Source: Candidatus Pacearchaeota archaeon (GTDB lineage Archaea; Nanobdellota; Nanobdellia; Pacearchaeales; GW2011-AR1). Taken from it: a stretch of DNA of 36,613 bases. The DNA is taken from positions 1-36,613 of the forward strand of contig JACOYJ010000025.1 of assembly GCA_016181885.1 (NCBI GenBank), read 5' to 3'. Within the stretch, counting starts at the first letter, position 1; each line of letters starts with the position of its first letter. The translations under genes and the position numbers were made by a program. This document shows, piece after piece, positions 8,844 to 20,479 of this stretch. Under the pieces are notes generated by a model that saw nothing but the letters and a program-made list of their open reading frames with translations, had not been told where the DNA came from and did not search any database.

Positions 8844-8986
8844 CGCCCCCGCCAGGAATCGAACCTGGAGGCCCGTAAGGGCCCGGTTTGCTTGATTTTT
8901 CTCTTTAAAGGGAAAGGTAGTGTCAGGAAAACCGTAGGTTTTCCCACATACTCAAGACCGGTGCTCTACCATTGAGCGACGGAGGC
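8844..8986 (-). tRNA. tRNA-Ser (anticodon TGA) with a 62-nt intron
   Basis: Exons are 8951-8986 and 8844-8888. Acceptor GCCTCCG pairs with CGGGGGC (one G-U), the discriminator is G, the D arm is GCTC/GAGC, the anticodon stem CCGGT/ACCGG, and the T arm CCAGG/CCTGG with TTCGATT. A long variable arm (GCCC/GGGC) marks a class II tRNA; with anticodon TGA this is serine. The intron (8889-8950) sits at the canonical 37/38 site and can form a bulge-helix-bulge: CTTG/CAAG flanked by 3-nt bulges AGT and CAA. The intron holds the hairpin GGAAAACC-TAC-GGTTTTCC. Confidence 0.92.
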
Positions 8987-15483: not shown

Positions 15484-15508
15484 TAAATTTATAAATGTTT
15501 TATAAGCC
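15484..15508. promoter_or_regulatory. Divergent TATA boxes for ispG and the AI-2E transporter
   Basis: AAATTTATAAATG (15486-15496) can be read as TATA on both strands, and TTTTATAAG (15498-15506) is a second rightward box. Rightward initiation near 15528 lies after the upstream in-frame ATG at 15495, supporting the ispG start at 15558. Confidence 0.5.
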
Positions 15509-15557
15509 TTTAATTTACCATGCTAAAGATTATATACTAACCCTGCTGGGTTTTTTT

Positions 15558-16697
15558 ATGGAAAAGATATTAAGAAAACCGACAAGAAAAATCAAGATAG
15601 GCTCTACATTTATCGGAAATGGAAATCCAATTGCGGTTCAAGGCATGACCTCGACAAAAACGCAGAATATAGACGAGACAATAGCTCAGATAAAATCATT
15701 GAAAGAGGCTGGAGCAGACATAATAAGGATTGCTGTAGATAGCAAGGAAGATGCTTATTCCTTGATGAAAATAAGGGAAAATGTTGATGCCAATCTATCA
15801 GTGGATTTGCAGGAAAATTACGGGCTGGCTAAATTAATCGCCCCTTATGTTGATAAAATACGTTATAACCCAGGACACCTATATCACCATGAAAAAGAAA
15901 AGCCATGGCAGGAAAAAGTAAAATTTATTGCTTCTGCAGCTGCTGATAACGATTGCGCAATTAGAATTGGAATAAACTGCGGATCTGTTGATCCAGAGAT
16001 AAAAATGAAGTATCTGTTGGAAGACACAATTTCTCCAATGATTGAAAGCTCGCTGGAACACTGCCTCTTGCTTGATAATCTTGGATTTACAAGATACTGC
16101 GTTTCCTTAAAAGATTCAGACCCTCAAAAAGTAATAGAATTAAACAGGAAATTTTCAGATATAAGGCCGGAAATTCCGCTGCATCTAGGAGTTACTGAAG
16201 CTGGAATGCCTCCAGACGGAATTATCAAAACAAGAATTGCTCTTGAACAATTAATTAGCAGAGGAATAGGAGATACTATAAGAGTTTCTCTAACGCTTCC
16301 CAATAGTAAAAAATCCGAAGAGATAGAGGCTGGAAGGCAGATTATCAATGATATAATGAACGGCAGAGTAAGAACAGTTGTAGATTATAACAAAGACGGA
16401 TTAAACCTTATCAGCTGTCCAAGCTGTTCAAGAGTTGAAAATGAAAATTTTGTTGATTTGGCGAAGAGGGTTGAAGAAGCTACTAAAGACTTGAAAAAAC
16501 ATAAAATAACTATTGCGACAATGGGCTGCAGAGTCAACGGACCTGGAGAAACAGACCATGCCGATATTGGATTATGGTGCGGTCCAAAGCATGTCAATTT
16601 AAAAGTTAGAGGAAATATTGTTGGATCTTTTTCTTATGAAGAAATTTTAATTGAATTAAGGAAAGAGATTGATAAATTAATAGAAAGAGATTCATAG
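15558..16697 (+). CDS. ispG: 4-hydroxy-3-methylbut-2-enyl diphosphate synthase (IspG/GcpE)
   Basis: IspG is a 4Fe-4S reductase of the bacterial/plastid MEP isoprenoid pathway, converting MEcPP to HMBPP. The 379-aa protein begins with the TIM barrel ([12 protein letters not shown]) and includes [15 protein letters not shown] and LLLDNLGF. The cluster ligands are C287, C290 (SCPSC), C324 ([10 protein letters not shown]) and E331. All archaea make isoprenoid lipids and most use a mevalonate route, so this gene is an unexpected, probably bacterial acquisition. No other MEP gene is in the window. The start at 15558 matches the first residues of the family ([13 protein letters not shown]). Confidence 0.95.
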
Positions 16698-16950: not shown

Positions 16951-17655
16951 ATGAACTTTATAAAAAAAATTTGGGATGAAAAAAGCGATGAACTCGCGCA
17001 TCTGCAGTTTCAAAAGTTTAGCAGGGGAGAATTTACAAATCGGGCTGGAATAAAGGTCAAGTCCTCTGGAGGAAGATACACAATTTACACAACTGCTGAA
17101 TTTGCAAATGAATTTGTTAGAACTATGGCTGAAAAATTGCAGGGCAATACGCAAGTTACCGGGGCGATTATTTCTACTGCTGATTTGACTGGGCAACTTG
17201 ACTTTAAAGATAAGAAGCAATTTCAAGGGGTAAAACAATACATTATCGATGGAGGAATGTCTGGAAAAGATATCTTAGATTTGCTTAATAAATTTCCCAA
17301 GGCATTTTTTGCTTTGAGCTTCAGCGTTGGAGAAAATGTTTTGAAAATAAAGGCAAAGGCACCGAAGTCTGGAAAGCCTGGAGGCAAAAGAGAGGAAGCG
17401 CCGGTTCCTGATTTCTGCAAGCTTATAACTACGGACAAGGAAATTGCAAAATCTTTTGTTTTTGAAAAACCTGAATTTAAGGAAGCAAACATAAACCACA
17501 CTTTTGTAATAAAAGAGATTGTTGTTCCTGAAAGCCTGAAAAAAAGCGATGATTTTGCGAAGATAAGAGAGGAGAGTAAGAGAAGTGGAAAAATTATGCG
17601 AGTAGCTAATATAGATGGTGTTGAGATGAAGAGTGAAAAAGAATTTGAGGCGTGA
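16951..17655 (+). CDS. Uncharacterised protein, 234 aa
   Basis: I do not recognise the family. The sequence looks like two alpha/beta domains: residues 1-130 (FIKKIWDEKSDELAHLQFQKF, then a beta-rich IKVKSSGGRYTIYTT and a helix EFVRTMAEKLQG) and 145-234 (CKLITTDKEIAKSFVFEKP, then a beta strand IKEIVVPE). A KAKAPKSGKPGGKREEAP linker joins them. There is no signal peptide or membrane segment. A leaderless promoter precedes it and the large ribosomal cluster begins 370 bp downstream. A nucleic-acid-related role is conceivable from the charge but unsupported. Confidence 0.75.
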   Translation: MNFIKKIWDEKSDELAHLQFQKFSRGEFTNRAGIKVKSSGGRYTIYTTAEFANEFVRTMAEKLQGNTQVTGAIISTADLTGQLDFKDKKQFQGVKQYIIDGGMSGKDILDLLNKFPKAFFALSFSVGENVLKIKAKAPKSGKPGGKREEAPVPDFCKLITTDKEIAKSFVFEKPEFKEANINHTFVIKEIVVPESLKKSDDFAKIREESKRSGKIMRVANIDGVEMKSEKEFEA

Positions 17656-17815: not shown

Positions 17816-17887
17816 AAACCCAACACGAACCTCGCCAAGAAACTATGAAAAGCGAGGCATTTTTCCTTGAAAAATGGTGTTGGGTTT
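17816..17887 (+). ncRNA. Candidate structured RNA: perfect three-way junction
   Basis: Three fully complementary stems close one junction. P1 is AAACCCAACAC (17816-17826) with GTGTTGGGTTT (17877-17887). P2 is CCTCGC (17830-17835) with GCGAGG (17852-17857), with a 16-nt loop. P3 is CATTTTT (17858-17864) with AAAAATG (17870-17876), with loop CCTTG. P2-P3 and P3-P1 join with no linker; P1-P2 has GAA. That is 24 base pairs without mismatch. A TATA box ends about 50 nt upstream, so it could be transcribed on its own, or it could be a MITE-like element. I match it to no known riboswitch. Confidence 0.6.
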
Positions 17888-17898
17888 GCAAAATCCCC

Positions 17899-17914
17899 AC
17901 CGAATAATTTATAA
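17899..17914 (+). promoter_or_regulatory. Distal uL3 promoter, identical to the uL1 promoter core
   Basis: ACCGAATAATTTATAA is a 16-base exact match to 645-660 in front of uL1. It lies 12 nt after the three-way junction. Confidence 0.65.
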
Positions 17915-17950
17915 TCGAAAATCGCTGTTTTCTCAAATAAACTTTCCTGT

Positions 17951-17966
17951 CGGAAACTTTATAAAC
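17951..17966 (+). promoter_or_regulatory. Proximal uL3 promoter
   Basis: CGGAAAC followed by TTTATAAAC gives a BRE/TATA pair. Initiation near 17990 leaves a leader of about 35 nt before uL3. Confidence 0.65.
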
Positions 17967-18025: not shown

Positions 18026-18967
18026 ATGGCAGTAATACACTCACCAAGGAAAGGGAGCCTGCAATATTGGCCCAGAAAGAGAATATATAAATTCCTCCCT
18101 AGTGTAAACTGGAATGTTGTTTCTTCTTCAAAAACACTCAAGGGCTTTATTGGATACAAGGCCGGAATGGCTTCTGTAAGCGTTAAAGACCTAACCCCTA
18201 ATTCTATGACAAAAGATAAAAAAATTGCGATTCCTGCAACGATAATCGAGTGCCCTCCTGCAAGGATTCTTTCTGCGCGATTCTATAAAAATAAGCAAGT
18301 CATGACTGAAATCCTGGCTGAAAACCTTGATAAAGATTTAAAGAGGAAAATAAAACTGCCGAAAAAGAGCGGTAAAAAAATTGATGATATAAAAGACTTT
18401 GATGACATAAGAGTTATTGTTTATTCTAATGTAAAAAAGACATCTATAAAAAAGACTCCTGACTTCGTTGAAATTGGCCTAAATGGGAGCTTGGATGAAA
18501 GACTTGCTTTTGTAAAGGAAAATTTTTCAAAAGAAATTCCTTTAAGCGAAGTTATTCAAAACGGACAATTAATTGATGTTCGTGGAGTCACAAAAGGAAA
18601 AGGCCTTCAAGGTACTGTTAAAAGATTTGGAGTTAAGTTAAGACAGCACAAATCTGAAAAAGGAGTGAGAAAGGTTGGAAGCATAGGTCCGTGGCATCCT
18701 GCGAGGCTGACTTTCAGAACCCCGATGGCCGGACAAATGGGGCTTTTCACAAGGACAGCCTACAATAATAAGATAATAGAAATTGCCAAGGCTGACGATA
18801 AACCTATAAAAAATATAAAAAATTACGGCGATTTAAAATCCGATTACATTCTCGTTTACGGTTCTATTCCCGGGCCGGCCAAAAGACAACTGCTTCTTAC
18901 TTATCCTTTGAGACAAACTAAACAACAAAGCAAAAAACAATATGAATTTATTGAGGTGTTAAAATGA
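18026..18967 (+). CDS. rpl3: Large-subunit ribosomal protein uL3
   Basis: uL3 binds 23S rRNA near the peptidyl-transferase centre and helps start large-subunit assembly. The 313-aa protein opens with the archaeal/eukaryal SPRKGSLQYWPRKR and contains DVRGVTKGKGLQGTVKRFGV and the central loop region GPWHPARLTFRTPMAGQMG. It is slightly shorter than most archaeal uL3 proteins. It leads the long cluster and shares a 4-base ATGA overlap with uL4. Confidence 0.97.
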   Translation: MAVIHSPRKGSLQYWPRKRIYKFLPSVNWNVVSSSKTLKGFIGYKAGMASVSVKDLTPNSMTKDKKIAIPATIIECPPARILSARFYKNKQVMTEILAENLDKDLKRKIKLPKKSGKKIDDIKDFDDIRVIVYSNVKKTSIKKTPDFVEIGLNGSLDERLAFVKENFSKEIPLSEVIQNGQLIDVRGVTKGKGLQGTVKRFGVKLRQHKSEKGVRKVGSIGPWHPARLTFRTPMAGQMGLFTRTAYNNKIIEIAKADDKPIKNIKNYGDLKSDYILVYGSIPGPAKRQLLLTYPLRQTKQQSKKQYEFIEVLK

Positions 18968-19755: not shown

Positions 19756-20033
19756 ACAAAGAAAAAACAAAGCAGATTATTGGAGAGGTAGTTTATTTGA
19801 AGCCTTTGGTGACGGAAAAAGCCGTTATGATGATAGAGTCCCAGAATGTCCTGACATTTAAGACTACGAAAAACACCCCTAAAGAAAAGATAAAAAAAGA
19901 AATTGAAGAGGTGCTCGAGGTTAAAGTTGATAGTATAAGAACGTTAATAAGAGGGAATGCTAAATATGCTTATGTAAGATTAAACAAAAAAACTTTGGCG
20001 ATGGATGTTGCTTCAAAGCTGGGGATAATATAA
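19752..20033 (+). CDS. rpl23: Large-subunit ribosomal protein uL23
   Basis: uL23 sits at the tunnel exit and docks the signal-recognition particle. The 93-aa protein has the family pattern LKPLVTEKAVMMIESQNVLTF, then KKEIEEVLEVKVDSIRTL and a final AYVRL. Its TAA stop shares one base with the start of an inserted HAD gene; uL2 would normally come next. Confidence 0.95.
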   Translation: MNKEKTKQIIGEVVYLKPLVTEKAVMMIESQNVLTFKTTKNTPKEKIKKEIEEVLEVKVDSIRTLIRGNAKYAYVRLNKKTLAMDVASKLGII

Positions 20034-20479
20034 TGACAAAGGCGATAATTTTTGATTGGATTGGTGTTTTATCTGCTGGAAGCAAAGGCGGAGTATTCAA
20101 AGATTCAAAAGAGATTTTGCAAAGATTGAAATCCAAAAAATATAGATTAGGGCTCGTTTCACTCGCCGGTTACGGAAATGAAAAAAGAGTTCGAGATATA
20201 GAAGATTCTGGATTAAAACCTTACTTCGATTCAATAGTTGTTGATACAACCAAAAAAATAGAGCATTATCAAAGGTGTTTGGACGAACTTGGAGTAAATC
20301 CGGATGAAGCGCTTATTGTCGACGATAGAACTGTTCGGGGAATTAAGATAGGGAACGAACTTGGCTGTAAAACTTGCTGGGTTATGTATGAAAAATATGC
20401 AAATGAAACCCCAAATAAAGAAACTGGAGAACCTACTTACAGAATTAAATCAACAAGAGACTTATTAACAATTTTATAA
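20033..20479 (+). CDS. HAD-superfamily hydrolase-like protein inserted before uL2
   Basis: The 148-aa protein starts AIIFDWIGVLS, with D8 in the nucleophile position of motif I. The usual second Asp is replaced by I10, as in haloacid-dehalogenase-type members, so phosphatase activity is uncertain. Motif II-like LGLVSLAG, a lysine within TTKKIEHYQRCLDELG and motif IV LIVDDRTVRGIKIGNELG complete the fold, and the cap domain is minimal. It interrupts the conserved uL23-uL2 order and is translationally linked to uL23. The substrate is unknown. Confidence 0.8.
   Translation: MTKAIIFDWIGVLSAGSKGGVFKDSKEILQRLKSKKYRLGLVSLAGYGNEKRVRDIEDSGLKPYFDSIVVDTTKKIEHYQRCLDELGVNPDEALIVDDRTVRGIKIGNELGCKTCWVMYEKYANETPNKETGEPTYRIKSTRDLLTIL

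What the first reader, a model, noticed from the sequence alone, without database searches (positions are those of the whole stretch)
17816..17887. Perfect three-way-junction RNA candidate upstream of the uL3 cluster
Three stems of 11, 6 and 7 bp close a junction with only a GAA linker, 24 base pairs with no mismatch. Such a fold by chance is very improbable. A TATA box lies about 50 nt upstream, and the uL3 promoters follow 12 and 64 nt downstream. It could be an independent small RNA, a cis-regulatory element of the ribosomal cluster, or a short inverted-repeat mobile element with AAACCCAACAC termini. I recognise no riboswitch class.
Basis: seen in the sequence. Interest (0 to 1): 0.75.

Follow-up and report, generated by a model that had tools for sequence, protein, structure and literature searches.

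The report
Dispersed T-shaped palindromic repeat in archaeon
The folded element next to a ribosomal-protein gene is real, but it is one of at least five scattered, diverged copies of a short T-shaped palindromic repeat in a Pacearchaeota-like archaeal genome, so it looks like a repeat family of unknown job rather than a private switch for that gene.

Summary
Window 17816-17887 folds as a closed three-way junction with stems of 11, 6 and 8 bp and a GAA linker, far better than shuffles (z -5.6).

It is not unique. The same fold occurs at five dispersed loci in this genome (C57, C7, C49, C3, C30) and two in another genus of the same family. In the 7-copy alignment 14 of 25 pairs show changes on both sides, and no shuffle reaches the covariation score. 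A scan using structure alone recovers exactly four of the copies; 12 random genomes give no match with arms of 11 bp or more. Rfam, phage, plasmid and viral searches find nothing.

No uL3 locus fetched from relatives carries it, so it is not a conserved uL3 element. Half-changed pairs favour neither strand (5 G-U against 4 A-C), which weakens the RNA reading. Six of seven copies lie 9-43 nt from a stop codon.

Best reading (0.6): a REP- or MITE-like dispersed palindrome that acts or spreads as folded DNA. No tag, target-site duplication or linked transposase was found, so it is not filed as a member of either family. Rival (0.2): a 3'-end RNA element.

The parts
17816..17826 (+). P1 5' arm (AAACCCAACAC), outer 11-bp inverted repeat
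17827..17829 (+). junction linker GAA (GAA or AAA in six of seven copies)
17830..17835 (+). P2 5' arm (CCTCGC)
17836..17851 (+). P2 loop, variable in length and sequence between copies
17852..17857 (+). P2 3' arm (GCGAGG)
17858..17865 (+). P3 5' arm (CATTTTTC)
17866..17868 (+). P3 loop, 3 nt
17869..17876 (+). P3 3' arm (GAAAAATG)
17877..17887 (+). P1 3' arm (GTGTTGGGTTT)
16951..17655 (+). upstream ORF of unknown family; its stop lies 160 nt before the element
18026..18967 (+). uL3 (Ribosomal_L3), 138 nt after the element; not part of the element
17908..17966 (+). two TATA-like boxes (17908-17915 and 17957-17966) between element and uL3, placing the element outside the predicted uL3 leader
   Evidence: read by eye

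Best explanation
This is one copy of a low-copy family of dispersed T-shaped palindromic DNA repeats, 59-72 nt long, in a Pacearchaeota-like archaeon: a REP- or MITE-like element. Outer arms of the AAAACC...GGTTTT type close over two hairpins, so either strand can fold into a compact three-way junction when single-stranded or extruded. Shown: five diverged copies here and two in another genus, at unrelated sites with unrelated flanks, with pairing preserved by double changes. Inferred: copies arise by DNA-level duplication, possibly through a single-strand transposase acting in trans. Also inferred: the fold is kept because it is what the copying or binding machinery recognises, or because template switching between arms corrects it. 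Any effect on mRNA ends would be secondary.
For: Copies: DNA and covariance searches and a full scan of the genome stretches, which added C30. Structure-only scan finds exactly the four perfect or near-perfect copies. Covariation: 14/25 pairs with double changes, covariation score 0.56 vs 0.21 in shuffles (0/500) and at most 0.12 in slid controls. In the closest pair of copies, unpaired sites differ at 9/21 but paired sites at 5/50 (p 0.003), with all pairs kept (chance 0.0007). Strand symmetry: 5 G-U vs 4 A-C half-changes; copy G154b carries both kinds. For C30 and G154b the complementary strand folds better. Flanks are unrelated. Host genes are unrelated. No uL3-linked conservation. Two IS200-like Y1 transposases are present in the genome.
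Against: No target-site duplication. Low copy number with no near-identical recent copies. The two Y1 transposase genes are flanked by hairpins of different sequence and shape. No empty site could be shown: the EF-1alpha locus of same-genus relatives lacks the element, but its downstream flank is not alignable. Position is mildly biased towards the 3' side of the upstream gene (mean relative position in the gap 0.23, p 0.009 over six copies), which could mean an RNA-end role.
Confidence: 0.6

Rival explanations
1. A 3'-end RNA element: the folded end of the upstream gene's transcript stops polymerase or protects the mRNA from exonucleases, with T-runs at both ends making it work from either side.
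For: Six of seven copies lie 9-43 nt from a stop codon; several P1 arms run into T-tracts; positional bias p 0.009; pairing is preserved.
Against: Gene 3' flanks in this genome show almost no hairpin excess (mean -0.6 kcal/mol), so this is not the general terminator. On the strand read from the nearest gene, half-changes are G-U in c7, c3 and one pair of G154b, but A-C in c49, c30 and two pairs of G154b. The C49 copy is antisense to its neighbours. The window copy is 160 nt from the stop. A three-way junction is not needed for termination.
Confidence: 0.2
2. A paralogous family of independent small RNAs transcribed from the GAA-linker strand.
For: Strong fold and covariation; GAACC context at the linker is conserved in most copies; the window copy has an upstream TATA-like box.
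Against: No common promoter placement seen among copies; no strand bias of G-U against A-C; terminal loops not conserved in sequence; no Rfam match.
Confidence: 0.1
3. Mutational palindrome repair: the pairing is kept by template switching between the arms, with no function and no selection.
For: Explains compensatory changes without strand bias and the mixture of perfect and decaying copies.
Against: Does not explain dispersal or why the same two-armed architecture is shared across two genera.
Confidence: 0.07
4. A cis-regulatory element specific to uL3 or the ribosomal cluster.
For: Position between the upstream ORF and the uL3 TATA-like boxes.
Against: Other copies sit at unrelated genes; absent from all uL3 loci fetched from relatives and searched; lies outside the predicted uL3 leader.
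Confidence: 0.02
5. Chance fold in an AT-rich genome.
For: Random genomes yield up to four weaker look-alikes.
Against: No random look-alike has arms of 11 bp or more, and homologous covarying copies exist.
Confidence: 0.01

Closest known systems
REP elements (GTAG- and CGTC-tagged repetitive extragenic palindromes; PMC3733652)
   Same: Short dispersed palindromes, mostly downstream of genes, with subfamilies that vary by complementary changes in the stem.
   Different: REPs are 20-40 bp palindromes, often in high copy, with an unpaired GTAG or CGTC tag, and the GTAG type is often linked to RAYT transposases. Here the unit is 59-72 nt, two-armed, untagged, low copy, with no linked transposase seen.
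MITEs (non-autonomous inverted-repeat transposons; reviewed in PMC10969869)
   Same: Short, non-coding, terminal inverted repeats, dispersed and intergenic.
   Different: No target-site duplication, no parent transposon with matching ends found, no recent identical copies; almost the whole unit is base-paired.
IS200/IS605 end hairpins
   Same: Single-strand DNA hairpins recognised by Y1 transposases (own knowledge); two Y1 genes exist in this genome.
   Different: The hairpins beside those two genes differ in sequence and shape from the element.
Intrinsic (hairpin plus T-run) terminators
   Same: Palindrome after a stop codon with T-runs.
   Different: Homologous copies of one two-armed unit, one antisense to its neighbours, and no genome-wide hairpin use at gene ends.
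Integron attC sites
   Same: Long imperfect palindrome that folds as single-stranded DNA.
   Different: Comparison from memory only: the window P1 fits RYYYAAC/GTTRRRY, but the other copies do not, and no cassette array was seen.

Membership tests
REP element | Unpaired GTAG or CGTC tag at one end | tested here: not met
   No such tag at the ends of the seven copies (flanks).
REP element | Single 20-40 bp palindrome | tested here: not met
   59-72 nt with two inner arms.
REP element | Dispersed extragenic copies, mostly downstream of genes | tested here: met
   Seven intergenic copies, six within 9-43 nt of a stop codon.
REP element | High copy number or association with a RAYT/Y1 transposase gene | tested here: not met
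   Five and two copies per genome; the two Y1 genes found carry different hairpins.
MITE | Terminal inverted repeats | tested here: met
   9-11 bp outer arms in every copy, at most one unpaired position each.
MITE | Target-site duplication | tested here: not met
   No consistent flanking duplication.
MITE | Same ends as a transposase-bearing element | tested here: inconclusive
   None seen, but only two Y1 loci were examined and 7% of the genome is masked.
Known RNA family (Rfam 15) | Match to a covariance model | tested here: not met
   No match over the element in the window or in five other copies; the C30 copy was not run.
Functional structured RNA | Covariation that preserves pairing | tested here: met
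   14/25 pairs with double changes; equally expected for a DNA fold.
Functional structured RNA | Wobble changes biased to one strand | tested here: not met
   5 G-U vs 4 A-C; small numbers.
Functional structured RNA | A transcript | not testable with these tools
   No expression data.

The most novel reading that the evidence does not exclude
A new class of archaeal mobile or chromosome-organising element whose recognised unit is a T-shaped three-way-junction DNA fold, maintained by its own recognition protein in Pacearchaeota-like cells.
Probability: 0.2. Interest if true: 0.7.

Novelty: new variant of a known kind. Interest (0 to 1): 0.45.

Why it matters
Dispersed palindromic repeats are well described in bacteria; the library searches I made found nothing on them for these reduced, symbiont-like archaea. 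A unit that keeps a three-way junction through double changes at seven unrelated sites, without favouring one strand, points to selection or copying at the DNA level. It also shows that strong covariation alone does not prove a non-coding RNA.

Tried and rejected
BLAST of the element against 56 genomes gave only short chance matches outside this genome (inspected). Exact AAACCCAACAC ends: two solitary hits elsewhere, not full elements. Weak covariance hits in G065, G132, G111, G145 and others were judged chance, being coding or lacking the fold. Phage, plasmid, viral and species-genome pattern searches found nothing. An empty-site test at the EF-1alpha locus failed because flanks are not alignable. 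A first idea that G-U pairs show a + strand RNA (from three copies) was dropped when C30 and G154b showed the opposite. G154 was added as a second genome for the structure scan; its imperfect copy is missed by the strict scan, and two weaker 9-bp-arm look-alikes appear there.

Full report
Check of the observation. Window 17816-17887 folds as a three-way junction with 11-, 6- and 8-bp stems and a GAA linker; MFE -28.5 kcal/mol, z -5.63, 0/200 shuffles. The complementary strand folds as well, so the fold alone does not name a strand. Rfam 15 has no match there.

It is a family. The 106-base query hits a second place in the same genome, C7:22422-22492, 79% identical over the element only, upstream of enolase. 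A covariance model from these two finds a third, C49:36803-36863, and the three-copy model a fourth, C3:1020-1080. The same model, run over 200 genomes of the order, finds one in genome G154, a different genus of the same family, and a five-copy model finds a second there. I then took stretches covering the whole 1.1-Mb genome and about 0.69 Mb of G154. Running the model on them adds a fifth copy here, C30:6806-6864 at E 1.6e-8, which the genome search had missed, and nothing new in G154. The genome search therefore under-counts, and the apparent absence from nearly all of the 200 order genomes may partly reflect missed copies.

Independent test. A scan of the whole genome for outer arms closing over exactly two clean hairpins, with no sequence input, returns C57, C7, C49 and C3 and nothing else. 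Twelve random genomes give 0-4 weaker look-alikes, none with arms of 11 bp or more. About 79 kb of the genome is masked.

Covariation. In the seven-copy alignment 14 of 25 pairs have double changes and 93.7% of cells pair; no shuffle reaches the covariation score, and sliding the partners by 1-3 columns destroys it. Between the two closest copies, unpaired sites differ at 9/21 and paired sites at 5/50, yet every pair is kept. Plain neutral decay after insertion is therefore not enough for those copies. G154b and C30 do carry mismatches on one strand.

Which strand? If an RNA of fixed strand were selected, half-changed pairs should be G-U on that strand and not A-C. Counted on stems that I defined by hand for each copy, there are 5 G-U, 4 A-C and 1 C-T among 175 pairs. 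C7 and C49 keep the junction fold on the GAA strand only, and C3 folds on both; C30 and G154b fold better on the other strand. The numbers are small, but they give no support to a fixed-strand RNA and fit a DNA-level palindrome.

Surroundings. The copies lie at unrelated genes: an unknown ORF and uL3; a small ORF and enolase; DNA ligase; two unknown ORFs; a small ORF facing what reads as arginyl-tRNA synthetase; a small ORF after EF-1alpha (read from its sequence); and a metallo-hydrolase followed by what reads as FtsZ. Six are 9-43 nt from a stop codon; C49 is in the opposite orientation to its neighbours. Flanks are unrelated and show no consistent target duplication. None of the uL3 loci from relatives that were searched, most with upstream sequence, carries the element. 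These relatives (up to 67% identical uL3, titled Pacearchaeota, Nanoarchaeota and the like) are the basis for calling the host Pacearchaeota-like.

Mechanism. Shown: dispersed, diverged, pairing-preserving copies in two genera. Inferred: spread and maintenance at the DNA level. Two Y1 (IS200-like) transposases are present, but their flanking hairpins differ, so a link is only a possibility. A 3'-end RNA role remains the main rival. Its support is the stop-codon proximity (p 0.009 for six copies, computed before C30 was found); selection against insertion into promoters would give the same bias. Against it are the wobble counts and the absence of hairpin use at gene ends in general.

Known things. 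It works most like REP or MITE repeats (PMC3733652, PMC10969869), but tested defining features (tag, size, target duplication, linked transposase) are not met, so it is reported as a variant of the dispersed-palindrome kind, not as a member. Library searches on archaeal REP/MITE repeats, Pacearchaeota non-coding RNA and three-way-junction repeats returned no description of it; I read titles and abstracts only, plus passages of PMC3733652.

Noticed in passing
window 8844-8986 (-): tRNA gene with a roughly 65-nt insertion in the anticodon region, found by Rfam and missed by ARAGORN; probably an intron-bearing tRNA.
   Followed up: partly
window 15495-16697 (+): IspG/GcpE homologue (bacterial-type MEP pathway enzyme, bits just below the equivalog cut-offs) beside an archaeal ribosomal cluster.
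   Followed up: no
window 20033-20479 (+): Short HAD-like hydrolase ORF inside the ribosomal protein cluster (between what read as uL23 and uL2).
   Followed up: no
G000:C7 near 10605 (+) and G000:C8 (-), loci L149 and L150: Two IS200-like Y1 transposase genes, each with strong flanking hairpins unlike the element.
   Followed up: partly
L140 1501-1557 (-), genome G119: Marginal hit (E 0.05) with AACAGCGCGAACC and a P3-like hairpin; possibly a decayed copy in a third genome.
   Followed up: partly
L172 6806-6864 (G000:C30): Copy found by a full covariance scan (E 1.6e-8) but not by the genome search's first filter with the same model.
   Followed up: yes
L005 1501-1511 and L004 1501-1511: Solitary AAACCCAACAC matches at C28 and C5 without the rest of the element.
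   Followed up: yes
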